A DNA stretch of 64,000 bases from Cordylochernes scorpioides (Eukaryota > Arthropoda > Arachnida > Pseudoscorpiones > Chernetidae): contig CP092870.1 of assembly GCA_030710605.1 (NCBI GenBank), positions 52,217,921 to 52,281,920 on the forward strand. The letters are read 5' to 3'. The translations under genes and the position numbers were made by a program. The notes under the pieces were generated by a model that did no database searches, was not told where the DNA came from, and saw only the letters and a program-made list of their open reading frames with translations. This document shows, piece after piece, positions 1,824 through 24,112 of this stretch (the stretch's first letter is position 1; every line of letters begins with the position of its first letter).

Positions 1824-1922
1824 AAACCGTATTTTATGTGTTAATATTAAGTTGTTTCAGTGAAATATTTAAATGAACATATAACAGATACAAGTGTTAA
1901 CAAATTCAAACTGTAAACCTAC

Positions 1923-1943
1923 CTTGACCGCTGCGTCCTCCAT
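1923..1943 (-). promoter_or_regulatory. Candidate start exon with 5' splice site (copy 1 region)
   Basis: A seven-codon ATG exon (MEDAAVK) is followed by GTAGGT. No long frame lies downstream on the minus strand before the array ends, so this copy has no target. Confidence 0.5.
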
Positions 1944-2426
1944 TGTGTATATCTATTTCTGGCTGGCACATGTCGCGGGAGGGGAATGTCCCCCCACATT
2001 TCAAATTTAGACCATTTCTTCAGAATTTTTTTGAACAACAAGAAAATTAAAGAAGATAGGAAAAATAGTTAAAGGAAGAAAGCTAAGTTTTATAATCTTT
2101 ACAGATAGTTATATCAAAATAACTGATTTAACACTTATTCATCTTTTAATATTCCTTTAAAAAGGCAAATTATAAGAGTTTAATAAAGCTATTAATTGTG
2201 CAAATTCATCTTTATTTAACTTCCATTTTCCTCCCCAGAAATTGGAGATTAAACAAAAATGAACTATATACTTTAACACTTTAAAAATCTTGTGAAAAAA
2301 TCTTTTAATCAGTTATTTAATAAAAGTTTAATTAACTGTTAAAGATTATAAATTTGTATTAGTTAATATTAAGAGAAATTATAGAAAGTTGATTTCATAA
2401 ATGGATATTTCCATTTATTTTTTTTT

Positions 2427-4829: not shown

Positions 4830-6028
4830 CTTAGCGAGTTTAAATTAACATAAAAGAGGTGCTAACACTAATATGTTTGTAGTTTTTTTTTAGTTTTTTT
4901 AGTTTGTTATTCTTATGAATTTTTTAAATATATTTTACTTAATTGTTTTTGTGGTGATAAAATTTGTAATAAATTGAATAATTAATCTATAAATATGTAG
5001 ATATTACTGTTTGTTATCTGTTATATTTTTAAGAATAACTAATAAAAAAAACATCTTTAAACTAACAAAAACACTGAAAAAAACAAAAGTTCTGAAATTA
5101 TTTTTTTTTCTAGAATTACTTTTATAATTTAATTTTTAATAATCAAACAATGAAAGATAATTAAAATTTGTATGAAGATTTATTTATATTAGAATATCTA
5201 ATATAATTTAATTTGTATATTATGTTATATATAAAAAAAATATATCATAGAGCAAGCTCATATGAATTAATATAGTGTAGAAACTATATAACAAAATTAT
5301 AACAGTGATTCTAATTTTAAAAAATTTAAGGAGCAAACTGATAATAATGATAACTTATATCAGTTAGATTTGATTAGATTAGCAAGCTAAATCTAAATTA
5401 ATTATAATAATAAATAGTTATTTAATTTTATAGTCCAGTTTTGTATTAAAATTATCTTCACTATTATGATCATTTAAATACAAATTATAAAATTTGTAAA
5501 ATGTTATTAATTTGTAGATAGAGAGAGAAAAAAAAATCCTTTACTTCTATTACATCCTCAAGTTAATTATATATTTATAATTAATAACAATAAAAAAATT
5601 AACAAAGTAACGTCTATTACATCGGCTTTTACACGTCATTCAGACATACTCTAATCCTATATATAGAATAATCGAAGAGATAATATATATAATAGTTAGA
5701 AAAAAGAGAGAAAGACAGAACCATGCACTTTTAATCAAACTAATAATAAGGAAAAAAAAAAAGAGTTTTATAAAGAAGGTAGATAAGATTGTTAGTATAT
5801 ATATATATTTTTTTTTTATGATTTTATATTTTATCCTTTTTTTTTTTTTTTTTTTTTTAAAAAGATTTTTAAAGGTTTTTTTTATTTTATAATATGATTA
5901 TAAATAGTTGTATTTAGTAATATATCTATAGTATGAATTAACATTTGTTATAAGTTTGGATATTATGTTTTGAAACCCTAATGGTAGACCAGACATACAC
6001 AAAAAACTTTAAATTGAAATAAATTGGA

Positions 6029-6113
6029 AAAAGAGATCTGCTGGAACGGGGATCATCAGATAAAATTCCAGCGACATTTCAACCCCTTCTTTATTATGTC
6101 ATAGATCTCTTTT
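6029..6113 (-). ncRNA. Three-way-junction RNA element (copy 2)
   Basis: Identical minus-strand copy, within the predicted intron between 6213 and 4831. Confidence 0.6.
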
Positions 6114-6212
6114 AAACCGTATTTTATGTGTTAATATTAAGTTGTTTCAGTGAAATATTTAAATGAACATATAACAGATACAAGTGTTAACAAATTCAAA
6201 CTGTAAACCTAC

Positions 6213-6233
6213 CTTGACCGCTGCGTCCTCCAT
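6213..6233 (-). promoter_or_regulatory. Candidate start exon feeding copy 1
   Basis: Same seven codons and GTAGGT donor. The nearest phase-matched acceptor is AG at 4830-4831, giving an intron of 1383 nt before the copy 1 frame. Confidence 0.55.
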
Positions 6234-6657
6234 TGTGTATATCTATTTCTGGCTGGCACATGTCGCGGGAGGGGAATGTCCCCCCACATTTCAAATTTAG
6301 ACCATTTCTTCAGAATTTTTTTGAACAACAAGAAAATTAAAGAAGATAGGAAAAATAGTTAAAGGAAGAAAGCTAAGTTTTATAATCTTTACAGATAGTT
6401 ATATCAAAATAACTGATTTAACACTTATTCATCTTTTAATATTCCTTTAAAAGGCAAATTATAAGAGTTTAATAAAGCTATTAATTGTGCAAATTCATCT
6501 TTATTTAACTTCCATTTTCCTCCCCAGAAATTGGAGATTAAACAAAAATGAACTATATACTTTAACACTTTAAAAATCTTGTGAAAAAATCTTTTAATCA
6601 GTTATTTAATAAAAGTTTAATTAACTGTTAAAGATTATAAATTTGTATTAGTTAATA

Positions 6658-9117
6658 TTAAGAGAAATTATAGAAAGTTGATTTCATAAATGGATATTTC
6701 CATTTATTTTTTTTTAAATATTTTATAATTGATATACTGTTGAAATATTTTACTTGTTTGATACTAAATTTGTTTTTAATAAATTCCATGTTTAAATTTT
6801 TAACATCTTCTATGAAATTATCTAATATATTATTTATTCTATAAAATCTTAGAAACTGACCATAATATATACCTTTACAGCAATTTAATGATATATTAGA
6901 ATTCATATTACAGTATTTTATAATATTGAAATTATAATTACTCTTTTTATTATAAACTCTAACAGCACTATTTGTAAGGTCTATATTCAAGTCTAAAAAG
7001 TTAACTTTTTTGTTTCTATAAATTTTTTCATTGTTCTTAAGTTTCAAGTATTTAGGATATATTTCAGGTATTAATTTTTTAAACAGTGGATTATTAAATA
7101 TTATTATGTCATCTACATATCGGAATATTTGCCAATTAATATTATTTTGTAGAAAGTATTCTCTTTCGTACCAGAACAATATTAAATTTGCTAGTAACGG
7201 ACTAGAAGAAGTACCCATGGGAACGCCTTCTGATTGAATATATATTTTATTTTTAAATTCTATATAGTTAAAATTTAAAAATGTTTCCAGTAGAGTTTTT
7301 GCTGTTTTAAGATCTAATTTAAATGTTTTATATCTGTTATGAATAATTTTAATGTAGAAAGTTTTGTCATTAATTAATTCATTAAATAAATTGGTTATTT
7401 TATTCTTTAGATCTCTTAAATTTATTTTAGAATATAGGTCCTCAAAGTCAAATGTGTGTACTGTTTCAATGTTTGTCCAATTGTTCATTAAATAATTAAT
7501 GATTTTTTTATTTGAGTTGATAAATTTATAATTATATTTATTAGTTAATTTATTTATAATAAATTGTAGTGTTGAGGCTAATTGTATATCAATATTTTTT
7601 ATGACTGAATTTATAACAGATGTGATTGTTCTGAAAGAAATAGGTTTTTTGTGTAGTTTAGGAATTATATAGAACTTTGGTATGTTTGGATTTTTGTGGT
7701 TATTATAAATTTTTAGTGAATTTTCAACATTTTTGATGTCTTTTTTGATTTTTGTGCCTGTAGTTCTAGCAAAAGTGTATTTATGATTATTATCAATTTC
7801 CTTTTTTAGTATATCGTGGTATAGATTTTTACAAATTAAAGATAAATTATTGGGACATTTATCTATAGGAGTGATAATATAGTCCTTCTGTAAATTAATT
7901 ATATTTTCTTTGAAAGAAGGAATGTCTGAATTGGGTTTTGTGTATTTAAGTGTATTATTATAATAATTTATAATTTCCTTTTTAATATTATGTTTCCATT
8001 CCAGAAAAGTAAATTCTGGAATACTGTATTTTATACTAGTTTTATTTATGAAAATATCTATATCTTTTAATATAGATTTAATTGTATTATTATAATTGTG
8101 TTTAATTTGAGGTATATATTTATACCCTTTATTTAAAATTTCTTGATATTCTGGATTTAAAAAAGAAAAGTTGCTAGTTAATATATGACCTGAGTACTTA
8201 TATTTATCAATATAGTTGTTGCAATTACATTTAATTTTTTTAAAATTTGCCAAATTATTAATAAATTGGTTATAATTGCAAACTAAATTACCTATATTTT
8301 TATTGTATCTCCAGATTGTTTTAAAATTTAAATTTTTTATAGGGAAAAGATTATTGATGATTTGGTTATTAAAAATATCATTAAATTTAATATGATTAAA
8401 TAAATTGTTATTAAATTTAATGATAATATTAATGTTATTAGTATTTTGTTTAATTTTTCTGTATTTAAAGATGTCGTGTGTGATATCTATTAATCTGTTA
8501 GTCAGATTATGAATTTTAATATATTCTATGAGTTTGATAAATTTATTATTATTTAGTTTAAATAATGTTTTAATAAATTTATCGACGAAGTTGTTAGTGT
8601 ACATTTGTTTTGGGTCCAGTAATTCTTCAAATTCAATGTAACCTAATTTATTTGTAGTTTTACCTCTAGTTTTATTAGGTTTAGTTTTAAATTCATTTTT
8701 ATATTTGCAACTGATTTCATAAGTTGAAATTTCTTCTGTTTGTGGTTTGTATGTGTAGTTTAATTCGTCGTTAAGTCCATAAGGGAATAATGTGTTGTGT
8801 TTATAAATGTAGTTGTTTTCTAATAATAGTCGTTGTTTTTTGTTTTGACATATGTCTAGTATTTCTATCTTAAAGTTGTTAAAAGTATGTAATTGATTGT
8901 GTTCTTTCATATATATATTACCAATTGATTTTTTAGCGTGGTTTCTATGTAGGTTTATTCGTATATTTAATGGATTACAAGTTTGTCCTATATATGATAG
9001 TTGACAAATTTGGCATGTTAATTTATAAATAGTATTCACTAATTTACAACTAGTTGTTTGAAAAGTGTCATGGTTCTTAAGAGAGGGACAAGTTTGACAA
9101 TTTTTTCTTAGGCAATT
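6658..9117 (-). CDS. Penelope-like retroelement protein (copy 2), C-terminally extended
   Basis: All motifs of copy 1 are intact. There are two differences. A Gly to Val change follows the RFRTITS-type motif of the RT fingers (TSVINS instead of TSGINS). Sequence variation at the 3' TAT/poly-A junction also removes the usual stop, adding about 19 residues that end in FYNFS. The partial copy 3 shares the altered C-terminus, so these two left-arm units are the most closely related pair. Exon 1 would come from copy 3 (10497-10517). Confidence 0.88.
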   Translation of the reverse strand, partial: NCLRKNCQTCPSLKNHDTFQTTSCKLVNTIYKLTCQICQLSYIGQTCNPLNIRINLHRNHAKKSIGNIYMKEHNQLHTFNNFKIEILDICQNKKQRLLLENNYIYKHNTLFPYGLNDELNYTYKPQTEEISTYEISCKYKNEFKTKPNKTRGKTTNKLGYIEFEELLDPKQMYTNNFVDKFIKTLFKLNNNKFIKLIEYIKIHNLTNRLIDITHDIFKYRKIKQNTNNINIIIKFNNNLFNHIKFNDIFNNQIINNLFPIKNLNFKTIWRYNKNIGNLVCNYNQFINNLANFKKIKCNCNNYIDKYKYSGHILTSNFSFLNPEYQEILNKGYKYIPQIKHNYNNTIKSILKDIDIFINKTSIKYSIPEFTFLEWKHNIKKEIINYYNNTLKYTKPNSDIPSFKENIINLQKDYIITPIDKCPNNLSLICKNLYHDILKKEIDNNHKYTFARTTGTKIKKDIKNVENSLKIYNNHKNPNIPKFYIIPKLHKKPISFRTITSVINSVIKNIDIQLASTLQFIINKLTNKYNYKFINSNKKIINYLMNNWTNIETVHTFDFEDLYSKINLRDLKNKITNLFNELINDKTFYIKIIHNRYKTFKLDLKTAKTLLETFLNFNYIEFKNKIYIQSEGVPMGTSSSPLLANLILFWYEREYFLQNNINWQIFRYVDDIIIFNNPLFKKLIPEIYPKYLKLKNNEKIYRNKKVNFLDLNIDLTNSAVRVYNKKSNYNFNIIKYCNMNSNISLNCCKGIYYGQFLRFYRINNILDNFIEDVKNLNMEFIKNKFSIKQVKYFNSISIIKYLKKNKWKYPFMKSTFYNFS

Positions 9118-10312
9118 CTTAGCGAGTTTAAATTAACATAAAAGAGGTGCTAACACTAATATGTTTGTAGTTTTTTTTTAGTTTTTTTAGTTTGTTATTC
9201 TTATGAATTTTTTAAATATATTTTACTTAATTGTTTTTGTGGTGATAAAATTTGTAATAAATTGAATAATTAATCTATAAATATGTAGATATTACTGTTT
9301 GTTATCTGTTATATTTTTAAGAATAACTAATAAAAAAACATCTTTAAACTAACAAAAACACTGAAAAAACAAAAGTTCTGAAATTATTTTTTTTTCTAGA
9401 ATTACTTTTATAATTTAATTTTTAATAATCAAACAATGAAAGATAATTAAAATTTGTATGAAGATTTATTTATATTAGAATATCTAATATAATTTAATTT
9501 GTATATTATGTTATATATAAAAAAAATATATCATAGAGCAAGCTCATATGAATTAATATAGTGTAGAAACTATATAACAAAATTATAACAGTGATTCTAA
9601 TTTTAAAAAATTTAAGGAGCAAACTGATAATAATGATAACTTATATCAGTTAGATTTGATTAGATTAGCAAGCTAAATCTAAATTAATTATAATAATAAA
9701 TAGTTATTTAATTTTATAGTCCAGTTTTGTATTAAAATTATCTTCACTATTATGATCATTTAAATACAAATTATAAAATTTGTAAAATGTTATTAATTTG
9801 TAGATAGAGAGAGAAAAAAAAAATCCTTTACTTCTATTACATCCTCAAGTTAATTATATATTTATAATTAATAACAATAAAAAAATTAACAAAGTAACGT
9901 CTATTACATCGGCTTTTACACGTCATTCAGACATACTCTAATCCTATATATAGAATAATCGAAGAGATAATATATATAATAGTTAGAAAAAAGAGAGAAA
10001 GACAGAACCATGCACTTTTAATCAAACTAATAATAAGGAAAAAAAAAAAAAGAGTTTTATAAAGAAGGTAGATAAGATTGTTAGTATATATATATATTTT
10101 TTTTTATGATTTTATATTTTATCCTTTTTTTTTTTTTTTTTTTAAAAAGATTTTTAAAGGTTTTTTTATTTTATAATATGATTATAAATAGTTGTATTTA
10201 GTAATATATCTATAGTATGAATTAACATTTGTTATAAGTTTGGATATTATGTTTTGAAACCCTAATGGTAGACCAGACATACACAAAAAACTTTAAATTG
10301 AAATAAATTGGA

Positions 10313-10397
10313 AAAAGAGATCTGCTGGAACGGGGATCATCAGATAAAATTCCAGCGACATTTCAACCCCTTCTTTATTATGTCATAGATCTCTTTT
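10313..10397 (-). ncRNA. Three-way-junction RNA element (copy 3)
   Basis: Identical minus-strand copy, within the predicted intron between 10497 and 9119. Confidence 0.6.
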
Positions 10398-10496
10398 AAA
10401 CCGTATTTTATGTGTTAATATTAAGTTGTTTCAGTGAAATATTTAAATGAACATATAACAGATACAAGTGTTAACAAATTCAAACTGTAAACCTAC

Positions 10497-10517
10497 CTTG
10501 ACCGCTGCGTCCTCCAT
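10497..10517 (-). promoter_or_regulatory. Candidate start exon feeding copy 2
   Basis: Same exon. The acceptor is the AG at 9118-9119 just upstream of the copy 2 frame. Confidence 0.55.
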
Positions 10518-10941
10518 TGTGTATATCTATTTCTGGCTGGCACATGTCGCGGGAGGGGAATGTCCCCCCACATTTCAAATTTAGACCATTTCTTCAGAAT
10601 TTTTTTGAACAACAAGAAAATTAAAGAAGATAGGAAAAATAGTTAAAGGAAGAAAGCTAAGTTTTATAATCTTTACAGATAGTTATATCAAAATAACTGA
10701 TTTAACACTTATTCATCTTTTAATATTCCTTTAAAAAGGCAAATTATAAGAGTTTAATAAAGCTATTAATTGTGCAAATTCATCTTTATTTAACTTCCAT
10801 TTTCCTCCCCAGAAATTGGAGATTAAACAAAATGAACTATATACTTTAACACTTTAAAAATCTTGTGAAAAAATCTTTTAATCAGTTATTTAATAAAAGT
10901 TTAATTAACTGTTAAAGATTATAAATTTGTATTAGTTAATA

Positions 10942-11043
10942 TTAAGAGAAATTATAGAAAGTTGATTTCATAAATGGATATTTCCATTTATTTTTTTTTA
11001 AATATTTTATAATTGATATACTGTTGAAATATTTTACTTGTTT
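10942..11043 (-). CDS. Penelope-like retroelement protein (copy 3), C-terminal fragment cut by gap
   Basis: Only the last codons remain before the run of N. They match the tail of copy 2, including the read-through extension. The missing part is an assembly gap, not evidence of a truncated gene. Confidence 0.75.
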   Translation of the reverse strand, partial: KQVKYFNSISIIKYLKKNKWKYPFMKSTFYNFS

Positions 11044-11143
11044 NNNNNNNNNNNNNNNNNNNNNNNNNNNNNNNNNNNNNNNNNNNNNNNNNNNNNNNNN
11101 NNNNNNNNNNNNNNNNNNNNNNNNNNNNNNNNNNNNNNNNNNN
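11044..11143. other. Assembly gap (100 N) at array inversion point
   Basis: Exactly 100 N, the usual placeholder for a gap of unknown size. Orientation switches from minus to plus across it. At least the rest of copy 3, with its 5' region, and the first part of the pre-copy-4 unit are missing here. Confidence 0.95.
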
Positions 11144-11678
11144 ACTGATATAAGTTATCATTATTATCAGTTTGCTCCTTAAATTTTTTAAAATTAGAAT
11201 CACTGTTATAATTTTGTTATATAGTTTCTACACTATATTAATTCATATGAGCTTGCTCTATGATATATTTTTTTTTATATATAACATAATATACAAATTA
11301 AATTATATTAGATATTCTAATATAAATAAATCTTCATACAAATTTTAATTATCTTTCATTGTTTGATTATTAAAAATTAAATTATAAAAGTAATTCTAGA
11401 AAAAAAAATAATTTCAGAACTTTTGTTTTTTTCAGTGTTTTTGTTAGCTTAAAGATGTTTTTTTTATTAGTTATTCTTAAAAATATAACAGATAACAAAC
11501 AGTAATATCTACATATTTATAGATTAATTATTCAATTTATTACAAATTTTATCACCACAAAAACAATTAAGTAAAATATATTTAAAAAATTCATAAGAAT
11601 AACAAACTAAAAAAACTAAAAAAAACTACAAACATATTAGTGTTAGCACCTCTTTTATGTTAATTTAAACTCGCTAAG

Positions 11679-14081
11679 AATTGCCTAAGAAAAAATTGTC
11701 AAACTTGTCCCTCTCTTAAGAACCATGACACTTTTCAAACAACTAGTTGTAAATTAGTGAATACTATTTATAAATTAACATGCCAAATTTGTCAACTATC
11801 ATATATAGGACAAACTTGTAATCCATTAAATATACGAATAAACCTACATAGAAACCACGCTAAAAAATCAATTGGTAATATATATATGAAAGAACACAAT
11901 CAATTACATACTTTTAACAACTTTAAGATAGAAATACTAGACATATGTCAAAACAAAAAACAACGACTATTATTAGAAAACAACTACATTTATAAACACA
12001 ACACATTATTCCCTTATGGACTTAACGACGAATTAAACTACACATACAAACCACAAACAGAAGAAATTTCAACTTATGAAATCAGTTGCAAATATAAAAA
12101 TGAATTTAAAACTAAACCTAATAAAACTAGAGGTAAAACTACAAATAAATTAGGTTACATTGAATTTGAAGAATTACTGGACCCAAAACAAATGTACACT
12201 AACAACTTCGTCGATAAATTTATTAAAACATTATTTAAACTAAATAATAATAAATTTATCAAACTCATAGAATATATTAAAATTCATAATCTGACTAACA
12301 GATTAATAGATATCACACACGACATCTTTAAATACAGAAAAATTAAACAAAATACTAATAACATTAATATTATCATTAAATTTAATAACAATTTATTTAA
12401 TCATATTAAATTTAATGATATTTTTAATAACCAAATCATCAATAATCTTTTCCCTATAAAAAATTTAAATTTTAAAACAATCTGGAGATACAATAAAAAT
12501 ATAGGTAATTTAGTTTGCAATTATAACCAATTTATTAATAATTTGGCAAATTTTAAAAAAATTAAATGTAATTGCAACAACTATATTGATAAATATAAGT
12601 ACTCAGGTCATATATTAACTAGCAACTTTTCTTTTTTAAATCCAGAATATCAAGAAATTTTAAATAAAGGGTATAAATATATACCTCAAATTAAACACAA
12701 TTATAATAATACAATTAAATCTATATTAAAAGATATAGATATTTTCATAAATAAAACTAGTATAAAATACAGTATTCCAGAATTTACTTTTCTGGAATGG
12801 AAACATAATATTAAAAAGGAAATTATAAATTATTATAATAATACACTTAAATACACAAAACCCAATTCAGACATTCCTTCTTTCAAAGAAAATATAATTA
12901 ATTTACAGAAGGACTATATTATCACTCCTATAGATAAATGTCCCAATAATTTATCTTTAATTTGTAAAAATCTATACCACGATATACTAAAAAAGGAAAT
13001 TGATAATAATCATAAATACACTTTTGCTAGAACTACAGGCACAAAAATCAAAAAAGACATCAAAAATGTTGAAAATTCACTAAAAATTTATAATAACCAC
13101 AAAAATCCAAACATACCAAAGTTCTATATAATTCCTAAACTACACAAAAAACCTATTTCTTTCAGAACAATCACATCTGGTATAAATTCAGTCATAAAAA
13201 ATATTGATATACAATTAGCCTCAACACTACAATTTATTATAAATAAATTAACTAATAAATATAATTATAAATTTATCAACTCAAATAAAAAAATCATTAA
13301 TTATTTAATGAACAATTGGACAAACATTGAAACAGTACACACATTTGACTTTGAGGACCTATATTCTAAAATAAATTTAAGAGATCTAAAGAATAAAATA
13401 ACCAATTTATTTAATGAATTAATTAATGACAAAACTTTCTACATTAAAATTATTCATAACAGATATAAAACATTTAAATTAGATCTTAAAACAGCAAAAA
13501 CTCTACTGGAAACATTTTTAAATTTTAACTATATAGAATTTAAAAATAAAATATATATTCAATCAGAAGGCGTTCCCATGGGTACTTCTTCTAGTCCGTT
13601 ACTAGCAAATTTAATATTGTTCTGGTACGAAAGAGAATACTTTCTACAAAATAATATTAATTGGCAAATATTCCGATATGTAGATGACATAATAATATTT
13701 AATAATCCACTGTTTAAAAAATTAATACCTGAAATATATCCTAAATACTTGAAACTTAAGAACAATGAAAAAATTTATAGAAACAAAAAAGTTAACTTTT
13801 TAGACTTGAATATAGACCTTACAAATAGTGCTGTTAGAGTTTATAATAAAAAGAGTAATTATAATTTCAATATTATAAAATACTGTAATATGAATTCTAA
13901 TATATCATTAAATTGCTGTAAAGGTATATATTATGGTCAGTTTCTAAGATTTTATAGAATAAATAATATATTAGATAATTTCATAGAAGATGTTAAAAAT
14001 TTAAACATGGAATTTATTAAAAACAAATTTAGTATCAAACAAGTAAAATATTTCAACAGTATATCAATTATAAAATATTAA
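11679..14081 (+). CDS. Penelope-like retroelement protein (copy 4), reference copy
   Basis: The frame runs from the AG at 11677-11678 to TAA at 14079-14081. It is closed upstream by TAA at 11661-11663 with no ATG between. Numbering residues from GTG 11757: TIY 3-5, Cys9 and Cys12, YIG 16-18, Arg27, Glu74, PYGLN soon after, CxC at Cys271/Cys273, RT motif A FDFEDLY 530-536, catalytic YVDD 641-644. The first in-frame ATG is residue 44, past the GIY-YIG signature. The protein is very rich in Asn, Lys and Ile, as expected from its AT-rich DNA. The upstream exon that would feed it lies in the gap. Confidence 0.92.
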   Translation, partial: NCLRKNCQTCPSLKNHDTFQTTSCKLVNTIYKLTCQICQLSYIGQTCNPLNIRINLHRNHAKKSIGNIYMKEHNQLHTFNNFKIEILDICQNKKQRLLLENNYIYKHNTLFPYGLNDELNYTYKPQTEEISTYEISCKYKNEFKTKPNKTRGKTTNKLGYIEFEELLDPKQMYTNNFVDKFIKTLFKLNNNKFIKLIEYIKIHNLTNRLIDITHDIFKYRKIKQNTNNINIIIKFNNNLFNHIKFNDIFNNQIINNLFPIKNLNFKTIWRYNKNIGNLVCNYNQFINNLANFKKIKCNCNNYIDKYKYSGHILTSNFSFLNPEYQEILNKGYKYIPQIKHNYNNTIKSILKDIDIFINKTSIKYSIPEFTFLEWKHNIKKEIINYYNNTLKYTKPNSDIPSFKENIINLQKDYIITPIDKCPNNLSLICKNLYHDILKKEIDNNHKYTFARTTGTKIKKDIKNVENSLKIYNNHKNPNIPKFYIIPKLHKKPISFRTITSGINSVIKNIDIQLASTLQFIINKLTNKYNYKFINSNKKIINYLMNNWTNIETVHTFDFEDLYSKINLRDLKNKITNLFNELINDKTFYIKIIHNRYKTFKLDLKTAKTLLETFLNFNYIEFKNKIYIQSEGVPMGTSSSPLLANLILFWYEREYFLQNNINWQIFRYVDDIIIFNNPLFKKLIPEIYPKYLKLKNNEKIYRNKKVNFLDLNIDLTNSAVRVYNKKSNYNFNIIKYCNMNSNISLNCCKGIYYGQFLRFYRINNILDNFIEDVKNLNMEFIKNKFSIKQVKYFNSISIIKY

Positions 14082-14194
14082 AAAAAAAATAAATGGAAAT
14101 ATCCATTTATGAAATCAACTTTCTATAATTTCTCTTAATATTAACTAATACAAATTTATAATCTTTAACAGTTAATTAAACTTTTATTAAATAA

Positions 14195-14350
14195 CTGATT
14201 AAAAGATTTTTTCACAAGATTTTTAAAGTGTTAAAGTATAGAGTTCATTTTTGTTTAATCTCCAATTTCTGGGGAGGAAAATGGAAGTTAAATAAAGATG
14301 AATTTGCACAATTAATAGCTTTATTAAACTCTTATAATTTGCCTTTTTAA
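14195..14350 (+). other. Possible small coding exon downstream of Penelope-like ORF
   Basis: A 51-codon open frame begins about 110 nt after the main stop and contains FWGGKWKLNKDEFAQL, which looks protein-like. It has no ATG. Equivalents are at 18481-18636, 22759-22914 and, on the minus strand, 2157-2312. In copy 2 a one-base loss extends it to end in GILKDE. In copy 3 a one-base loss in an A run shifts it. It may be a C-terminal exon, a relic of a longer protein, or chance. Confidence 0.3.
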
Positions 14351-14563
14351 AGGAATATTAAAAGATGAATAAGTGTTAAATCAGTTATTTTGATATAACT
14401 ATCTGTAAAGATTATAAAACTTAGCTTTCTTCCTTTAACTATTTTTCCTATCTTCTTTAATTTTCTTGTTGTTCAAAAAAATTCTGAAGAAATGGTCTAA
14501 ATTTGAAATGTGGGGGGACATTCCCCTCCCGCGACATGTGCCAGCCAGAAATAGATATACACA

Positions 14564-14584
14564 ATGGAGGACGCAGCGGTCAAG
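14564..14584 (+). promoter_or_regulatory. Candidate start exon feeding copy 5
   Basis: ATG GAG GAC GCA GCG GTC AAG precedes GTAGGT, a near-ideal 5' splice site. The ATG context is strong (A at -3, G at +4). The exon ends on a codon boundary. The AG at 15963-15964 opens the next long frame, also on a codon boundary (AAT TGC CTA). The exon is GC-richer than its surroundings, which supports function. The acceptor's pyrimidine tract is weak, which is the main doubt. Confidence 0.6.
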
Positions 14585-14683
14585 GTAGGTTTACAGTTTG
14601 AATTTGTTAACACTTGTATCTGTTATATGTTCATTTAAATATTTCACTGAAACAACTTAATATTAACACATAAAATACGGTTT

Positions 14684-14768
14684 AAAAGAGATCTATGACA
14701 TAATAAAGAAGGGGTTGAAATGTCGCTGGAATTTTATCTGATGATCCCCGTTCCAGCAGATCTCTTTT
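14684..14768 (+). ncRNA. Three-way-junction RNA element in Penelope-like unit (copy 4)
   Basis: P1 pairs AAAAGAGATCT (14684-14694) with AGATCTCTTTT (14758-14768), 11 bp. P2 pairs GACAT (14697-14701) with ATGTC (14720-14724). P3 pairs GCTGGAA (14725-14731) with TTCCAGC (14751-14757). P2 and P3 abut directly, as do P3 and P1, and two nucleotides join P1 to P2. GGGG in the P2 loop (14711-14714) can pair with CCCC in the P3 loop (14746-14749). CTGATGA lies in the P3 loop, GAAA follows GGGGTT, and AATAAA lies in the P2 loop. The order of these motifs does not give a standard hammerhead. The pairing was found by eye; activity is unknown. Confidence 0.6.
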
Positions 14769-15964
14769 TCCAATTTATTTCAATTTAAAGTTTTTTGTGT
14801 ATGTCTGGTCTACCATTAGGGTTTCAAAACATAATATCCAAACTTATAACAAATGTTAATTCATACTATAGATATATTACTAAATACAACTATTTATAAT
14901 CATATTATAAAATAAAAAAACCTTTAAAAATCTTTTTAAAAAAAAAAAAAAAAAAAAGGATAAAATATAAAATCATAAAAAAAAATATATATATATACTA
15001 ACAATCTTATCTACCTTCTTTATAAAACTCTTTTTTTTTTTTCCTTATTATTAGTTTGATTAAAAGTGCATGGTTCTGTCTTTCTCTCTTTTTTCTAACT
15101 ATTATATATATTATCTCTTCGATTATTCTATATATAGGATTAGAGTATGTCTGAATGACGTGTAAAAGCCGATGTAATAGACGTTACTTTGTTAATTTTT
15201 TTTATTGTTATTAATTATAAATATATAATTAACTTGAGGATGTAATAGAAGTAAAGGATTTTTTTTTCTCTCTCTATCTACAAATTAATAACATTTTACA
15301 AATTTTATAATTTGTATTTAAATGATCATAATAGTGAAGATAATTTTAATACAAAACTGGACTATAAAATTAAATAACTATTTATTATTATAATTAATTT
15401 AGATTTAGCTTGCTAATCTAATCAAATCTAACTGATATAAGTTATCATTATTATCAGTTTGCTCCTTAAATTTTTTAAAATTAGAATCACTGTTATAATT
15501 TTGTTATATAGTTTCTACACTATATTAATTCATATGAGCTTGCTCTATGATATATTTTTTTTATATATAACATAATATACAAATTAAATTATATTAGATA
15601 TTCTAATATAAATAAATCTTCATACAAATTTTAATTATCTTTCATTGTTTGATTATTAAAAATTAAATTATAAAAGTAATTCTAGAAAAAAAAATAATTT
15701 CAGAACTTTTGTTTTTTTCAGTGTTTTTGTTAGTTTAAAGATGTTTTTTTTATTAGTTATTCTTAAAAATATAACAGATAACAAACAGTAATATCTACAT
15801 ATTTATAGATTAATTATTCAATTTATTACAAATTTTATCACCACAAAAACAATTAAGTAAAATATATTTAAAAAATTCATAAGAATAACAAACTAAAAAA
15901 ACTAAAAAAAACTACAAACATATTAGTGTTAGCACCTCTTTTATGTTAATTTAAACTCGCTAAG

Positions 15965-18367
15965 AATTGCCTAAGAAAAAATTGTCAAACTTGTCCCTCT
16001 CTTAAGAACCATGACACTTTTCAAACAACTAGTTGTAAATTAGTGAATACTATTTATAAATTAACATGCCAAATTTGTCAACTATCATATATAGGACAAA
16101 CTTGTAATCCATTAAATATACGAATAAACCTACATAGAAACCACGCTAAAAAATCAATTGGTAATATATATATGAAAGAACACAATCAATTACATACTTT
16201 TAACAACTTTAAGATAGAAATACTAGACATATGTCAAAACAAAAAACAACGACTATTATTAGAAAACAACTACATTTATAAACACAACACATTATTCCCT
16301 TATGGACTTAACGACGAATTAAACTACACATACAAACCACAAACAGAAGAAATTTCAACTTATGAAATCAGTTGCAAATATAAAAATGAATTTAAAACTA
16401 AACCTAATAAAACTAGAGGTAAAACTACAAATAAATTAGGTTACATTGAATTTGAAGAATTACTGGACCCAAAACAAATGTACACTAACAACTTCGTCGA
16501 TAAATTTATTAAAACATTATTTAAACTAAATAATAATAAATTTATCAAACTCATAGAATATATTAAAATTCATAATCTGACTAACAGATTAATAGATATC
16601 ACACACGACATCTTTAAATACAGAAAAATTAAACAAAATACTAATAACATTAATATTATCATTAAATTTAATAACAATTTATTTAATCATATTAAATTTA
16701 ATGATATTTTTAATAACCAAATCATCAATAATCTTTTCCCTATAAAAAATTTAAATTTTAAAACAATCTGGAGATACAATAAAAATATAGGTAATTTAGT
16801 TTGCAATTATAACCAATTTATTAATAATTTGGCAAATTTTAAAAAAATTAAATGTAATTGCAACAACTATATTGATAAATATAAGTACTCAGGTCATATA
16901 TTAACTAGCAACTTTTCTTTTTTAAATCCAGAATATCAAGAAATTTTAAATAAAGGGTATAAATATATACCTCAAATTAAACACAATTATAATAATACAA
17001 TTAAATCTATATTAAAAGATATAGATATTTTCATAAATAAAACTAGTATAAAATACAGTATTCCAGAATTTACTTTTCTGGAATGGAAACATAATATTAA
17101 AAAGGAAATTATAAATTATTATAATAATACACTTAAATACACAAAACCCAATTCAGACATTCCTTCTTTCAAAGAAAATATAATTAATTTACAGAAGGAC
17201 TATATTATCACTCCTATAGATAAATGTCCCAATAATTTATCTTTAATTTGTAAAAATCTATACCACGATATACTAAAAAAGGAAATTGATAATAATCATA
17301 AATACACTTTTGCTAGAACTACAGGCACAAAAATCAAAAAAGACATCAAAAATGTTGAAAATTCACTAAAAATTTATAATAACCACAAAAATCCAAACAT
17401 ACCAAAGTTCTATATAATTCCTAAACTACACAAAAAACCTATTTCTTTCAGAACAATCACATCTGGTATAAATTCAGTCATAAAAAATATTGATATACAA
17501 TTAGCCTCAACACTACAATTTATTATAAATAAATTAACTAATAAATATAATTATAAATTTATCAACTCAAATAAAAAAATCATTAATTATTTAATGAACA
17601 ATTGGACAAACATTGAAACAGTACACACATTTGACTTTGAGGACCTATATTCTAAAATAAATTTAAGAGATCTAAAGAATAAAATAACCAATTTATTTAA
17701 TGAATTAATTAATGACAAAACTTTCTACATTAAAATTATTCATAACAGATATAAAACATTTAAATTAGATCTTAAAACAGCAAAAACTCTACTGGAAACA
17801 TTTTTAAATTTTAACTATATAGAATTTAAAAATAAAATATATATTCAATCAGAAGGCGTTCCCATGGGTACTTCTTCTAGTCCGTTACTAGCAAATTTAA
17901 TATTGTTCTGGTACGAAAGAGAATACTTTCTACAAAATAATATTAATTGGCAAATATTCCGATATGTAGATGACATAATAATATTTAATAATCCACTGTT
18001 TAAAAAATTAATACCTGAAATATATCCTAAATACTTGAAACTTAAGAACAATGAAAAAATTTATAGAAACAAAAAAGTTAACTTTTTAGACTTGAATATA
18101 GACCTTACAAATAGTGCTGTTAGAGTTTATAATAAAAAGAGTAATTATAATTTCAATATTATAAAATACTGTAATATGAATTCTAATATATCATTAAATT
18201 GCTGTAAAGGTATATATTATGGTCAGTTTCTAAGATTTTATAGAATAAATAATATATTAGATAATTTCATAGAAGATGTTAAAAATTTAAACATGGAATT
18301 TATTAAAAACAAATTTAGTATCAAACAAGTAAAATATTTCAACAGTATATCAATTATAAAATATTAA
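15965..18367 (+). CDS. Penelope-like retroelement protein (copy 5)
   Basis: From the GTG position onward the translation is identical to copy 4 and has no lesions. It is the one right-arm copy with both a sequenced candidate exon 1 (14564-14584) and an intact frame, so it is the best candidate for an expressed unit. The predicted intron is 14585-15964 (1380 nt), and joining is phase 0 on both sides. Confidence 0.92.
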   Translation, partial: NCLRKNCQTCPSLKNHDTFQTTSCKLVNTIYKLTCQICQLSYIGQTCNPLNIRINLHRNHAKKSIGNIYMKEHNQLHTFNNFKIEILDICQNKKQRLLLENNYIYKHNTLFPYGLNDELNYTYKPQTEEISTYEISCKYKNEFKTKPNKTRGKTTNKLGYIEFEELLDPKQMYTNNFVDKFIKTLFKLNNNKFIKLIEYIKIHNLTNRLIDITHDIFKYRKIKQNTNNINIIIKFNNNLFNHIKFNDIFNNQIINNLFPIKNLNFKTIWRYNKNIGNLVCNYNQFINNLANFKKIKCNCNNYIDKYKYSGHILTSNFSFLNPEYQEILNKGYKYIPQIKHNYNNTIKSILKDIDIFINKTSIKYSIPEFTFLEWKHNIKKEIINYYNNTLKYTKPNSDIPSFKENIINLQKDYIITPIDKCPNNLSLICKNLYHDILKKEIDNNHKYTFARTTGTKIKKDIKNVENSLKIYNNHKNPNIPKFYIIPKLHKKPISFRTITSGINSVIKNIDIQLASTLQFIINKLTNKYNYKFINSNKKIINYLMNNWTNIETVHTFDFEDLYSKINLRDLKNKITNLFNELINDKTFYIKIIHNRYKTFKLDLKTAKTLLETFLNFNYIEFKNKIYIQSEGVPMGTSSSPLLANLILFWYEREYFLQNNINWQIFRYVDDIIIFNNPLFKKLIPEIYPKYLKLKNNEKIYRNKKVNFLDLNIDLTNSAVRVYNKKSNYNFNIIKYCNMNSNISLNCCKGIYYGQFLRFYRINNILDNFIEDVKNLNMEFIKNKFSIKQVKYFNSISIIKY

Positions 18368-18849
18368 AAAAAAAATAAATGGAAATATCCATTTATGAAA
18401 TCAACTTTCTATAATTTCTCTTAATATTAACTAATACAAATTTATAATCTTTAACAGTTAATTAAACTTTTATTAAATAACTGATTAAAAGATTTTTTCA
18501 CAAGATTTTTAAAGTGTTAAAGTATAGAGTTCATTTTTGTTTAATCTCCAATTTCTGGGGAGGAAAATGGAAGTTAAATAAAGATGAATTTGCACAATTA
18601 ATAGCTTTATTAAACTCTTATAATTTGCCTTTTTAAAGGAATATTAAAAGATGAATAAGTGTTAAATCAGTTATTTTGATATAACTATCTGTAAAGATTA
18701 TAAAACTTAGCTTTCTTCCTTTAACTATTTTTCCTATCTTCTTTAATTTTCTTGTTGTTCAAAAAAATTCTGAAGAAATGGTCTAAATTTGAAATGTGGG
18801 GGGACATTCCCCTCCCGCGACATGTGCCAGCCAGAAATAGATATACACA

Positions 18850-18870
18850 ATGGAGGACGCAGCGGTCAAG
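18850..18870 (+). promoter_or_regulatory. Candidate start exon feeding copy 6
   Basis: Same exon and donor. It would join the AG at 20241-20242, but copy 6 then meets the nonsense codon at 20339. Confidence 0.55.
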
Positions 18871-18969
18871 GTAGGTTTACAGTTTGAATTTGTTAACACT
18901 TGTATCTGTTATATGTTCATTTAAATATTTCACTGAAACAACTTAATATTAACACATAAAATACGGTTT

Positions 18970-19054
18970 AAAAGAGATCTATGACATAATAAAGAAGGGG
19001 TTGAAATGTCGCTGGAATTTTATCTGATGATCCCCGTTCCAGCAGATCTCTTTT
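18970..19054 (+). ncRNA. Three-way-junction RNA element (copy 5)
   Basis: All 85 positions are identical to the 14684-14768 element although nearby homopolymers differ in length. Confidence 0.6.
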
Positions 19055-20242
19055 TCCAATTTATTTCAATTTAAAGTTTTTTGTGTATGTCTGGTCTACC
19101 ATTAGGGTTTCAAAACATAATATCCAAACTTATAACAAATGTTAATTCATACTATAGATATATTACTAAATACAACTATTTATAATCATATTATAAAATA
19201 AAAAAACCTTTAAAAATCTTTTAAAAAAAAAAAAAAAAAAAGGATAAAATATAAAATCATAAAAAAATATATATATATATACTAACAATCTTATCTACCT
19301 TCTTTATAAAACTCTTTTTTTTTTTTTCCTTATTATTAGTTTGATTAAAAGTGCATGGTTCTGTCTTTCTCTCTTTTTTCTAACTATTATATATATTATC
19401 TCTTCGATTATTCTATATATAGGATTAGAGTATGTCTGAATGACGTGTAAAAGCCGATGTAATAGACGTTACTTTGTTAATTTTTTTTATTGTTATTAAT
19501 TATAAATATATAATTAACTTGAGGATGTAATAGAAGTAAAGGATTTTTTTTTTCTCTCTCTATCTACAAATTAATAACATTTTACAAATTTTATAATTTG
19601 TATTTAAATGATCATAATAGTGAAGATAATTTTAATACAAAACTGGACTATAAAATTAAATAACTATTTATTATTATAATTAATTTAGATTTAGCTTGCT
19701 AATCTAATCAAATCTAACTGATATAAGTTATCATTATTATCAGTTTGCTCCTTAAATTTTTTAAAATTAGAATCACTGTTATAATTTTGTTATATAGTTT
19801 CTACACTATATTAATTCATATGAGCTTGCTCTATGATATATTTTTTTTTATATATAACATAATATACAAATTAAATTATATTAGATATTCTAATATAAAT
19901 AAATCTTCATACAAATTTTAATTATCTTTCATTGTTTGATTATTAAAAATTAAATTATAAAAGTAATTCTAGAAAAAAAAATAATTTCAGAACTTTTGTT
20001 TTTTTCAGTGTTTTTGTTAGTTTAAAGATGTTTTTTTTATTAGTTATTCTTAAAAATATAACAGATAACAAACAGTAATATCTACATATTTATAGATTAA
20101 TTATTCAATTTATTACAAATTTTATCACCACAAAAACAATTAAGTAAAATATATTTAAAAAATTCATAAGAATAACAAACTAAAAAAAACTACAAACATA
20201 TTAGTGTTAGCACCTCTTTTATGTTAATTTAAACTCGCTAAG

Positions 20243-22645
20243 AATTGCCTAAGAAAAAATTGTCAAACTTGTCCCTCTCTTAAGAACCATGACACTTTTC
20301 AAACAACTAGTTGTAAATTAGTGAATACTATTTATAAATAAACATGCCAAATTTGTCAACTATCATATATAGGACAAACTTGTAATCCATTAAATATACG
20401 AATAAACCTACATAGAAACCACGCTAAAAAATCAATTGGTAATATATATATGAAAGAACACAATCAATTACATACTTTTAACAACTTTAAGATAGAAATA
20501 CTAGACATATGTCAAAACAAAAAACAACGACTATTATTAGAAAACAACTACATTTATAAACACAACACATTATTCCCTTATGGACTTAACGACGAATTAA
20601 ACTACACATACAAACCACAAACAGAAGAAATTTCAACTTATGAAATCAGTTGCAAATATAAAAATGAATTTAAAACTAAACCTAATAAAACTAGAGGTAA
20701 AACTACAAATAAATTAGGTTACATTGAATTTGAAGAATTACTGGACCCAAAACAAATGTACACTAACAACTTCGTCGATAAATTTATTAAAACATTATTT
20801 AAACTAAATAATAATAAATTTATCAAACTCATAGAATATATTAAAATTCATAATCTGACTAACAGATTAATAGATATCACACACGACATCTTTAAATACA
20901 GAAAAATTAAACAAAATACTAATAACATTAATATTATCATTAAATTTAATAACAATTTATTTAATCATATTAAATTTAATGATATTTTTAATAACCAAAT
21001 CATCAATAATCTTTTCCCTATAAAAAATTTAAATTTTAAAACAATCTGGAGATACAATAAAAATATAGGTAATTTAGTTTGCAATTATAACCAATTTATT
21101 AATAATTTGGCAAATTTTAAAAAAATTAAATGTAATTGCAACAACTATATTGATAAATATAAGTACTCAGGTCATATATTAACTAGCAACTTTTCTTTTT
21201 TAAATCCAGAATATCAAGAAATTTTAAATAAAGGGTATAAATATATACCTCAAATTAAACACAATTATAATAATACAATTAAATCTATATTAAAAGATAT
21301 AGATATTTTCATAAATAAAACTAGTATAAAATACAGTATTCCAGAATTTACTTTTCTGGAATGGAAACATAATATTAAAAAGGAAATTATAAATTATTAT
21401 AATAATACACTTAAATACACAAAACCCAATTCAGACATTCCTTCTTTCAAAGAAAATATAATTAATTTACAGAAGGACTATATTATCACTCCTATAGATA
21501 AATGTCCCAATAATTTATCTTTAATTTGTAAAAATCTATACCACGATATACTAAAAAAGGAAATTGATAATAATCATAAATACACTTTTGCTAGAACTAC
21601 AGGCACAAAAATCAAAAAAGACATCAAAAATGTTGAAAATTCACTAAAAATTTATAATAACCACAAAAATCCAAACATACCAAAGTTCTATATAATTCCT
21701 AAACTACACAAAAAACCTATTTCTTTCAGAACAATCACATCTGGTATAAATTCAGTCATAAAAAATATTGATATACAATTAGCCTCAACACTACAATTTA
21801 TTATAAATAAATTAACTAATAAATATAATTATAAATTTATCAACTCAAATAAAAAAATCATTAATTATTTAATGAACAATTGGACAAACATTGAAACAGT
21901 ACACACATTTGACTTTGAGGACCTATATTCTAAAATAAATTTAAGAGATCTAAAGAATAAAATAACCAATTTATTTAATGAATTAATTAATGACAAAACT
22001 TTCTACATTAAAATTATTCATAACAGATATAAAACATTTAAATTAGATCTTAAAACAGCAAAAACTCTACTGGAAACATTTTTAAATTTTAACTATATAG
22101 AATTTAAAAATAAAATATATATTCAATCAGAAGGCGTTCCCATGGGTACTTCTTCTAGTCCGTTACTAGCAAATTTAATATTGTTCTGGTACGAAAGAGA
22201 ATACTTTCTACAAAATAATATTAATTGGCAAATATTCCGATATGTAGATGACATAATAATATTTAATAATCCACTGTTTAAAAAATTAATACCTGAAATA
22301 TATCCTAAATACTTGAAACTTAAGAACAATGAAAAAATTTATAGAAACAAAAAAGTTAACTTTTTAGACTTGAATATAGACCTTACAAATAGTGCTGTTA
22401 GAGTTTATAATAAAAAGAGTAATTATAATTTCAATATTATAAAATACTGTAATATGAATTCTAATATATCATTAAATTGCTGTAAAGGTATATATTATGG
22501 TCAGTTTCTAAGATTTTATAGAATAAATAATATATTAGATAATTTCATAGAAGATGTTAAAAATTTAAACATGGAATTTATTAAAAACAAATTTAGTATC
22601 AAACAAGTAAAATATTTCAACAGTATATCAATTATAAAATATTAA
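20243..22645 (+). pseudogene. Penelope-like retroelement protein (copy 6), endonuclease interrupted
   Basis: A TTA to TAA change at 20339-20341 places a stop inside the GIY-YIG motif region. The remaining frame is open from ATG 20450 to 22645 and keeps the CxC linker and RT. An 8-bp deletion in the A-rich leader upstream also distinguishes this copy. It could at most make an endonuclease-less RT. Confidence 0.88.
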
Positions 22646-23127
22646 AAAAAAAATAAATGGAAATATCCATTTATGAAATCAACTTTCTATAATTTCTCTT
22701 AATATTAACTAATACAAATTTATAATCTTTAACAGTTAATTAAACTTTTATTAAATAACTGATTAAAAGATTTTTTCACAAGATTTTTAAAGTGTTAAAG
22801 TATAGAGTTCATTTTTGTTTAATCTCCAATTTCTGGGGAGGAAAATGGAAGTTAAATAAAGATGAATTTGCACAATTAATAGCTTTATTAAACTCTTATA
22901 ATTTGCCTTTTTAAAGGAATATTAAAAGATGAATAAGTGTTAAATCAGTTATTTTGATATAACTATCTGTAAAGATTATAAAACTTAGCTTTCTTCCTTT
23001 AACTATTTTTCCTATCTTCTTTAATTTTCTTGTTGTTCAAAAAAATTCTGAAGAAATGGTCTAAATTTGAAATGTGGGGGGACATTCCCCTCCCGCGACA
23101 TGTGCCAGCCAGAAATAGATATACACA

Positions 23128-23148
23128 ATGGAGGACGCAGCGGTCAAG
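23128..23148 (+). promoter_or_regulatory. Candidate start exon at array edge (no downstream ORF)
   Basis: Same exon and donor. The array ends at about 24083, so any transcript from here would splice, if at all, into flanking DNA. Confidence 0.5.
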
Positions 23149-23247
23149 GTAGGTTTACAGTTTGAATTTGTTAACACTTGTATCTGTTATATGTTCATTT
23201 AAATATTTCACTGAAACAACTTAATATTAACACATAAAATACGGTTT

Positions 23248-23332
23248 AAAAGAGATCTATGACATAATAAAGAAGGGGTTGAAATGTCGCTGGAATTTTA
23301 TCTGATGATCCCCGTTCCAGCAGATCTCTTTT
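23248..23332 (+). ncRNA. Three-way-junction RNA element (copy 6)
   Basis: Identical copy, about 100 nt after the splice donor at 23148. It is retained although this unit's long frame is broken. Confidence 0.6.
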
Positions 23333-24078
23333 TCCAATTTATTTCAATTTAAAGTTTTTTGTGTATGTCTGGTCTACCATTAGGGTTTCAAAACATAATA
23401 TCCAAACTTATAACAAATGTTAATTCATACTATAGATATATTACTAAATACAACTATTTATAATCATATTATAAAATAAAAAAACCTTTAAAAATCTTTT
23501 TAAAAAAAAAAAAAACAGGATAAAATATAAAATCATAAAAAAATATATATATATATACTAACAATCTTATCTACCTTCTTTATAAAACTCTTTTTTTTTT
23601 TTTTCCTTATTATTAGTTTGATTAAAAGTGCATGGTTCTGTCTTTCTTTCTTTTTTCTAACTATTATATATATTATCTCTTCGATTATTCTATATATAGG
23701 ATTAGAGTATGTCTGAATGACGTGTAAAAGCCGATGTAATAGACGTTACTTTGTTAATTTTTTTTATTGTTATTAATTATAAATATATAATTAACTTGAG
23801 GATGTAATAGAAGTAAAGGATTTTTTTTCTCTCTCTATCTACAAATTAATAACATTTTACAAATTTTATAATTTGTATTTAAATGATCATAATAGTGAAG
23901 ATAATTTTAATACAAAACTGGACTATAAAATTAAATAACTATTTATTATTATAATTAATTTAGATTTAGCTTGCTAATCTAATCAAATCTATCTGATATA
24001 AGTTATCATTATTATCAGTTTGCTCCTTAAATTTTTTAAAATTAGAATCACTGTTATAATTTTGTTATATAGTTTCTA

Positions 24079-24081
<3 letters not shown>

Positions 24082-24112
<31 letters not shown>
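24082..24112. repeat. (AT)n microsatellite at array edge
   Basis: About 15 AT dinucleotides lie at the right boundary of the array, and a MITE begins inside the same run. Confidence 0.85.

What the first reader, a model, noticed from the sequence alone, without database searches (positions are those of the whole stretch)
14684..14768. Invariant three-way-junction RNA with a loop-loop pair in every Penelope-like unit
Seen in the sequence: stems of 11, 5 and 7 bp meet in a junction with only two unpaired bases, and GGGG in one loop faces CCCC in the other. All six copies (1739, 6029, 10313, 14684, 18970, 23248) are identical. Known: canonical Penelope-like elements carry hammerhead ribozymes in their pseudo-LTRs, while N-terminal-endonuclease (Naiad) elements are described as lacking canonical ones. 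Inference: CUGAUGA and GAAA are present but in an order that does not form a standard hammerhead, so this may be a rearranged or new self-cleaving RNA, or the RT's template-recognition structure.
Basis: partly seen in the sequence, partly recalled or inferred. Interest (0 to 1): 0.88.

Follow-up and report, generated by a model that had tools for sequence, protein, structure and literature searches.

The report
Permuted hammerhead ribozyme in Naiad retroelement
A repeated 85-base RNA element in a jumping gene of an unnamed large genome has every part of a self-cutting hammerhead RNA, but with the parts in a scrambled order known so far from environmental RNA samples; whether it cuts has not been tested.

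Summary
In detail: six identical 85-mers with stems of 11, 5 and 7-8 bp and a GGGG/CCCC loop-loop pair. The RNA is not a new class. It fits the non-circularly permuted type-SGC hammerhead of Eckert et al. 2023 block by block: U16.1-A17|stem I, 3-nt linker, stem II, GAAA, stem III, CUGAUGA, and a helix joining stems I and II. One irregularity: stem II starts with unpaired U/UU.

The Naiad copies are too alike to show covariation. The same genome holds a second, unrelated type-SGC family in a 368-nt retrozyme-like repeat, one decayed copy in this window (55737-55998). Three distinct copies show compensatory changes in all four helices. A strict pattern has 62,772 matches, control 0, and listed copies show the head-to-head tandem layout of the Naiad.

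Eckert et al. found no type-SGC RNA in genomes of known organisms. Cleavage, circularisation and movement of the repeat by the Naiad are inferred, not tested.

The parts
14684..14768 (+). permuted (type-SGC) hammerhead with closing helix P1; representative copy
14684..14694 (+). P1 5' strand AAAAGAGATCT, pairs with 14758-14768; extra helix outside the hammerhead core
   Evidence: fold
14697..14701 (+). stem III 5' strand GACAT (14696 T can add a T.G pair); 14701 = U16.1
14702..14703 (+). predicted cleavage between A17 (14702) and 14703
   Evidence: by analogy with type-SGC; not tested
14703..14707 (+). stem I 5' strand ATAAA (14708 G can add a wobble pair), followed by 3-nt linker 14708-14710
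14711..14714 (+). stem II 3' strand GGGG, then unpaired TT 14715-14716
14717..14720 (+). conserved GAAA (block G)
14720..14724 (+). stem III 3' strand ATGTC
14725..14731 (+). helix joining stems I and II, 5' strand GCTGGAA
14733..14737 (+). stem I 3' strand TTTAT
14738..14744 (+). conserved CTGATGA (block C)
14746..14749 (+). stem II 5' strand CCCC, after one unpaired T at 14745
14751..14757 (+). joining helix, 3' strand TTCCAGC
14758..14768 (+). P1 3' strand AGATCTCTTTT
18970..19054 (+). second + copy, identical
23248..23332 (+). third + copy, identical
1739..1823 (-). - strand copy, identical
6029..6113 (-). - strand copy, identical
10313..10397 (-). - strand copy, identical; lies in a partial unit without its own full ORF upstream
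11757..14081 (+). Naiad-type ORF, 774 aa from the listed start; ribozyme lies in sense, about 600 nt after the stop
   Evidence: GIY-YIG and RVT_1
16043..18367 (+). Naiad-type ORF, second + unit (774 aa)
20450..22645 (+). Naiad-type ORF, third + unit (731 aa)
6658..9039 (-). Naiad-type ORF, - unit (793 aa)
2427..4751 (-). Naiad-type ORF, - unit (774 aa)
1118..24086 (.). whole head-to-head array of 4.29-kb units (minus units left, plus units right)
55737..55998 (+). diverged copy of the 368-nt type-SGC repeat (70% identity to L049 over 276 aligned columns)
55896..55962 (+). its type-SGC ribozyme; all four helices kept, core GAA reads GAC (decayed)

Best explanation
The 85-mer is a type-SGC (non-circularly permuted) hammerhead ribozyme carried in sense, once per 4.29-kb unit, by a young tandem-arrayed Naiad-type Penelope-like retroelement. 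Shown: every core block, all four helices and the order. Inferred: the RNA cleaves after A17 (14702|14703), so tandem transcripts are cut into unit-length RNAs whose 3' end (P1 and stem III 5' strands) stays paired with their 5' end (P1 and stem III 3' strands). That favours re-ligation into circles. Circular or multimeric templates copied by the element's own RT would then give the tandem, head-to-head arrays. The same machinery plausibly moves the second, seemingly non-coding 368-nt type-SGC repeat of this genome.
For: Order, core letters and helix positions match the published type-SGC description, including the 3-nt stem I-II linker, the joining helix and the 0-nt link from stem III that the paper reports for a few members. 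Low chance expectation. All six copies lie on the strand of the ORFs of their half of the array (five ORFs listed). A second, sequence-unrelated type-SGC family in the same genome: three distinct copies, 25 pairs in four helices, 98.6% of 74 cells paired, 5 pairs changed on both sides with at least one in each helix, none in slid controls, 2 of 500 shuffles as high. Pair 2 of its joining helix genome-wide: G-C 45,121, A-U 13,162, A.C 1,565, G.U 1,721 of 62,772. Neighbouring copies are (-,+), (+,+) or (-,-), and (+,-) is absent at short range in both families: 0 of 24 Naiad pairs within 9 kb; 0 of 15 and 0 of 37 pairs of the repeat within 450 nt, in two overlapping capped lists of 100 places.
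Against: Stem II is not flush with the core: one U on one side and UU on the other are unpaired before four G-C pairs, so the usual 10.1-11.1 pair is missing. No covariation inside the Naiad family; its copies are near-identical, and substitutions in two loci break one pair each. No clear extra conservation of the 85-mer. No shared sequence was found between Naiad and 368-nt units, so covariation in one is only indirect support for the other; the structure counted was laid by me on three sequences. The A-U class may be one subfamily founder event, and the double change tried at pair 3 has only 2 copies. Within 1000 nt, 2 of 22 neighbour pairs of the repeat are (+,-). In one other Penelope-like element, hammerhead mutants did not change insertion in vitro (PMC11167929, passages). 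No cleavage assay. An earlier pattern with a large excess over its control turned out to match an unrelated repeat, so pattern counts need care.
Confidence: 0.86

Rival explanations
1. A decayed or slow hammerhead: the permuted fold is inherited but the imperfect stem II leaves it with little activity, and the element spreads without it.
For: Missing 10.1-11.1 pair; hammerhead mutants harmless to insertion in vitro in another Penelope-like element; no clear extra conservation of the 85-mer.
Against: The whole 85-mer is identical in 40 of 40 scored copies, and no variant in fetched loci touches the core letters; Eckert et al. [quoted passage not shown]
Confidence: 0.08
2. A structured RNA that the RT recognises as template or start site; hammerhead letters are coincidence.
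For: Stable nested fold, one copy per unit; retroelement RTs bind their own RNA (established knowledge).
Against: Coincidence of core letters with four correctly placed helices is about 3e-5 per unit strand; recurrent 3' ends of arrays lie at unit positions 4249 and 95, some 600-850 nt from the ribozyme.
Confidence: 0.04
3. A DNA-level feature: the 11-bp inverted repeat AAAAGAGATCT/AGATCTCTTTT marks a tiny inserted element or a cruciform, with no RNA role.
For: Perfect 11-bp inverted ends.
Against: Internal helices and core fit an RNA; no target duplication at its edges by eye; same strand as the ORFs.
Confidence: 0.02

Closest known systems
Type-SGC hammerhead ribozymes (HRIMA-1 motif and variants; Eckert et al. 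2023, PMC10085705, sections and passages read)
   Same: Block order S-G-C, CUGAnGA, GAAA, stems I-III, joining helix, linker of about 3 nt, predicted cut site.
   Different: The paper reads as metatranscriptome-derived for this type and says none was found in genomes of known organisms; here in the DNA of a retroelement, with an extra 11-bp closing helix and an imperfect base of stem II.
Minimal type I hammerheads of Penelope-like elements (Cervera and de la Pena 2014; Lunse et al. 2017; neither is held; known here through)
   Same: Hammerhead in the repeated part of a Penelope-like element.
   Different: Permutation SGC instead of CGS (type I); this element has its GIY-YIG domain at the N-terminus.
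Metazoan retrozymes (PMC7229834, passages)
   Same: Tandem repeats of 150-450 bp with one hammerhead each, very high copy numbers in some animals, Penelope-like elements suggested as helpers.
   Different: Those carry type I hammerheads; the 368-nt repeat here carries type SGC.
Pseudoknot-containing hammerhead and pistol (PMC11300833, passages)
   Same: Hammerhead core with a pseudoknot helix.
   Different: Described as a loop of helix II pairing with a stem-loop attached to helix I; 'permut' does not occur in the paper.

Membership tests
type-SGC hammerhead | 5'-to-3' block order S, G, C | tested here: met
type-SGC hammerhead | CUGAnGA in block C | tested here: met
   CUGAUGA
type-SGC hammerhead | GAAA with A15.1 pairing U16.1 | tested here: met
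type-SGC hammerhead | cleavage site U-H (H not G) | tested here: met
   UA
type-SGC hammerhead | stem I and stem III flush with the core | tested here: met
   5 bp each, 6 with one G.U
type-SGC hammerhead | stem II next to the core | tested here: inconclusive
   4 G-C pairs, but 1 and 2 unpaired U at the base; the paper allows one or two nt between CUGAnGA and its stems
type-SGC hammerhead | helix joining stems I and II, and linker of about 3 nt | tested here: met
   GCUGGAA/UUCCAGC; linker GAA
type-SGC hammerhead | covariation in the Naiad ribozyme itself | tested here: inconclusive
   copies too alike; present in the separate 368-nt family
type-SGC hammerhead | self-cleavage at the predicted site | not testable with these tools
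   needs transcription in vitro
Naiad clade of Penelope-like elements | N-terminal GIY-YIG, C-terminal RT (feature recalled) | tested here: met
   PF01541 E 9.8e-7 at residues 28-108 of a 160-aa piece; PF00078 E 2.8e-9 in the C-terminal piece; the whole protein gave no hit
Naiad clade of Penelope-like elements | place in a tree of Penelope-like RTs | not tested
   no relatives in the collections searched
retrozyme (368-nt repeat) | small tandem repeat, one hammerhead each | tested here: met
   L049, period 368, 2.2 copies
retrozyme (368-nt repeat) | circular RNA in cells | not testable with these tools
   no RNA data

The most novel reading that the evidence does not exclude
Naiad-type elements and a huge family of retrozymes in the same genome both run on the non-circularly permuted SGC hammerhead. 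The Naiad RT copies circular or multimeric RNAs made by these ribozymes, its own and those of the retrozymes, which would give type-SGC ribozymes a DNA home and a life cycle. In this element both the protein domains (endonuclease first) and the ribozyme blocks are in a permuted order relative to the classic Penelope-like elements.
Probability: 0.4. Interest if true: 0.88.

Novelty: new variant of a known kind. Interest (0 to 1): 0.74.

Why it matters
Type-SGC hammerheads were described from metatranscriptomes, from poorly understood hosts and, as the paper reads, without a DNA form. Here they sit in genomic DNA, once per unit of an autonomous retroelement and in tens of thousands of copies of a small repeat. 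That gives the permuted fold a natural population large enough for covariation and structure work. It also makes two questions testable: which ribozyme Naiad elements use, and whether Penelope-like RTs copy ribozyme-made circular RNAs into tandem arrays.

Tried and rejected
Rfam at gathering scores: no hit in the window, but it also missed the canonical-order hammerhead motifs in L054, L058 and L061, so its silence says nothing. Relatives by protein or by RT motif in viral contigs and genome contigs: none. Pattern GGGGTTGAAAV..CTGANGA: 16 hits against 10 in the control; apart from L049, whose Naiad ribozyme it met across a head-to-head junction, treated as chance. Pattern SSNNGAAAV..CTGANGA: 1,637 against 36, but the one hit with letters (L012:381) looks by eye like Tc1/mariner coding sequence, so rejected. 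Pair 3 of the joining helix (G-C against C-G): only 2 copies of the double change, one of them the window's; the two broken classes were asked once, not answered and not repeated. The relaxed count of 117,019 against 3,244 is not used as a copy number: of 6 hits in fetched sequence other than the common Naiad form, 2 were the 368-nt repeat, 1 a Naiad variant and 3 another repeat. Conservation of the 85-mer as evidence of selection: rejected. Shared sequence between the Naiad unit and either small repeat: none convincing (best E 0.81). Family search PF01541 did not complete. No structure prediction of the protein was run.

Full report
What is there. Positions 1118-24086 hold an array of 4.29-kb units, minus units on the left, plus units on the right, with a 100-N gap between. 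Five open frames are listed, of 774, 793, 774, 774 and 731 aa. In the unit at 11757 the first 160 codons of the frame read from 11682 match GIY-YIG (E 9.8e-7, residues 28-108) and the C-terminal 426 codons match RVT_1 (E 2.8e-9); the whole protein gave no Pfam hit in the same call. That order, endonuclease first, is the mark of Naiad-type Penelope-like elements (recalled from Craig et al. 2021, which is not held). The family is young: 40 of 40 scored copies of the 85-mer are identical (903 candidates in the first look, the rest not scored), and 58 of 58 scored copies of the protein are listed at 100% identity, rounded.

The 85-mer. All six copies are identical and lie on the strand of the ORFs of their half of the array; in full units the 85-mer comes about 600 nt after the ORF stop. 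Placed against the type-SGC hammerhead, the pieces fall as follows in the copy at 14684: stem III 5' GACAU (14697-14701), A17 (14702), stem I 5' AUAAA (14703-14707), linker GAA, stem II 3' GGGG (14711-14714), UU, GAAA (14717-14720), stem III 3' AUGUC (to 14724), joining helix GCUGGAA (14725-14731), stem I 3' UUUAU (14733-14737), CUGAUGA (14738-14744), U, stem II 5' CCCC (14746-14749), G, joining helix UUCCAGC (14751-14757), all inside P1 (14684-14694 with 14758-14768). A descriptor scan of the window, both strands, finds order SGC at these six places only, and one further hit of order GCS. Eckert et al. 2023 (PMC10085705; I read sections 7, 13, 14, 15, 16, part 1 of 18, the abstract and passages) define the blocks S, G and C, report a linker of typically three nucleotides between one side of stem I and stem II, a helix joining the other sides, and a few members with no nucleotide between stem III and that helix. 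All three apply here. They showed cleavage of five type-SGC RNAs and, for one, rescue of all four helices by compensating changes.

Chance. In 2.136 Gb of first-order Markov sequence built from the window, stems I>=5, II>=4 (up to 2 nt from the core) and III>=5 in order SGC occur 137 times, and 14 times with a joining helix of at least 7 bp; the real values are 6, 4, 6 and 8 by the same script. That is about 3e-5 per unit strand, or 2e-4 if any of six orders is allowed (105 hits). An earlier, smaller run of 19.2 Mb gave 2 SGC hits without the joining helix.

What does not fit. The base of stem II is not paired (U against UU). The 85-mer is not clearly more conserved than its surroundings. Among 94 distinct BLAST matches (of 112), 5 of 85 positions vary (difference rate 0.0034), against 39 of 2325 in the ORF (0.0011), 50 of 500 in unit positions 3001-3500 (0.0075-0.0137 per 100-nt bin) and 44 of 600 in 3601-4200 (0-0.0071 per bin). 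So it lies below the stretch upstream, within the range downstream and above the ORF. The variants seen in fetched loci (50 identical hits, 25 others including 2 partial, some counted twice where loci overlap) change the linker, the unpaired G after stem II, one P1 pair to G.U, the first base, and in single loci one P1 pair and one joining-helix pair to A.C; none touches GAAA, CUGAUGA or the UA site.

A second type-SGC family. A relaxed genome pattern (GAAA, 12-24 nt, CUGAUGA, N, two G/C) gave 117,019 matches against 3,244 in the backward control. Looking for the cause in sequence already fetched, I found in L049 a tandem repeat of period 368 (2.2 copies) with a complete type-SGC ribozyme: AGCGGU-C|UAGAGA..UUUGGC-GAA-ACCGCU-GAGAGGG-UUCACUA-CUGAUGA-GCCAAG-CCCUCUC, with one mismatch in stem I. 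Two diverged copies were also in hand: window 55737-55998 (70% over 276 aligned columns) and L050:2614-2709 (75%). Each has lost one core letter (GAA to GAC; CUGAUGA to CUGAUUA), yet the helices are kept. On the alignment of the three distinct sequences, with a structure that I laid by hand, 25 pairs in four helices: 98.6% of 74 cells paired, five pairs changed on both sides (one in stem III, one in stem I, one in stem II, two in the joining helix), zero such pairs for every slid register, and 2 of 500 shuffles as high. A model built from these four copies finds them and nothing else better than E 0.1 in the window and 46 of the 61 loci. It does not report the Naiad ribozyme, and no shared sequence was found, so the two families may have arisen separately.

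Counts. A strict pattern around the joining helix of this family has 62,772 matches, control 0. At pair 2 of that helix: G-C 45,121, A-U 13,162, A.C 1,565, G.U 1,721, leaving 1,203 with other letters. The two paired states are separated by changes on both sides; the intermediates are rare and about equal, as expected of later decay. This counts copies, not events; one subfamily founder could account for the A-U class. At pair 3 the double change has 2 copies, and its broken classes were not obtained, so nothing can be said there.

Layout. Of neighbours within 450 nt among the first 100 places listed, 10 are (-,+), 5 (+,+), 0 (+,-), 0 (-,-) for the strict pattern; within 1000 nt they are 13, 5, 2 and 2. 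For the A-U class, whose list overlaps, they are 13, 8, 0 and 16 within 450 nt. One array in that list has 14 minus copies, mostly every 368 nt, from C1:8844962 and then 4 plus copies every 368 nt, the last at 8852352. The Naiad copies listed (38 of the 40; two lone copies left out) give 11 (-,+), 8 (+,+), 5 (-,-), 0 (+,-) within 9 kb. Head-to-head tandem arrays thus occur in both families. This is what one expects if the same machinery inserted both, but it is not proof.

Mechanism. Cleavage in a tandem transcript would leave unit-length RNAs. The 3' end of each carries the 5' strands of P1 and stem III, its 5' end their partners, about 16-17 bp in all, so the ends are held together for ligation (inference). 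Retrozymes of other animals are found as linear and circular RNAs of about 170-400 nt, and Penelope-like elements have been proposed as their helpers (PMC7229834, passages). Against a required role, hammerhead mutants of an Anolis Penelope-like element still inserted in vitro (PMC11167929, passages). Recurrent 3' ends of arrays at unit positions 4249 and 95 suggest that reverse transcription starts inside the unit, as reported for that element.

Literature check. 'type-SGC' occurs in one paper of the library. Searches pairing hammerhead or ribozyme with Penelope, retrozyme with permutation, Penelope-like with Naiad, and for permuted hammerheads gave, in their listings, no report of a permuted hammerhead in a Penelope-like element or in animal DNA (20 of 22 rows shown, 15 of 944). 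Eckert et al. [quoted passage not shown] Most subscription papers are not in the library, so this is not proof of novelty.

Verdict. A type-SGC hammerhead by anatomy, in a place where I found none described. The ribozyme kind is known; its home, its extra closing helix and its parallel in a very large retrozyme-like family are new as far as I could search. Activity and role remain to be tested.

Noticed in passing
L049:1-797: Tandem 368-nt repeat with a complete second type-SGC hammerhead next to a Naiad array; a strict pattern for its family has 62,772 matches in the genome.
   Followed up: partly
24925-24989 (+), 57484-57677 (-), 56549-56611 (+): Diverged pieces of a small repeat whose L061 form (352-nt tandem) carries a canonical-order (type I) hammerhead motif; so classic and permuted hammerheads lie in the same genome.
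   Followed up: partly
unit positions 4249 and 95 (window 1118 and 24086): Naiad arrays in the fetched loci often end at one of two places 133 nt apart in the unit, perhaps two reverse-transcription start sites.
   Followed up: partly
L049:1440-1568: Two Naiad arms meet head-to-head inside the ribozyme, both starting at its base 26, the seventh base after the predicted cut. Found by a pattern that selects for this, so only a hint.
   Followed up: no
11044-11143: Gap of 100 N between the inverted halves of the array.
   Followed up: no
G000, places listed: 818 matches to a Penelope-like RT motif that excludes this family's codon (control 0), more than ten different strings among the 90 shown with letters: probably many other Naiad-type families, unread.
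   Followed up: no
29912-30772 (-); 39058-43422 (+); 62844-63803 (-): Tc1-type transposase; gag, protease, RT, RNase H and integrase pieces of an LTR element; a further RT.
   Followed up: no
59405-59687: 58-nt tandem repeat, 4.9 copies, 97% matches.
   Followed up: no
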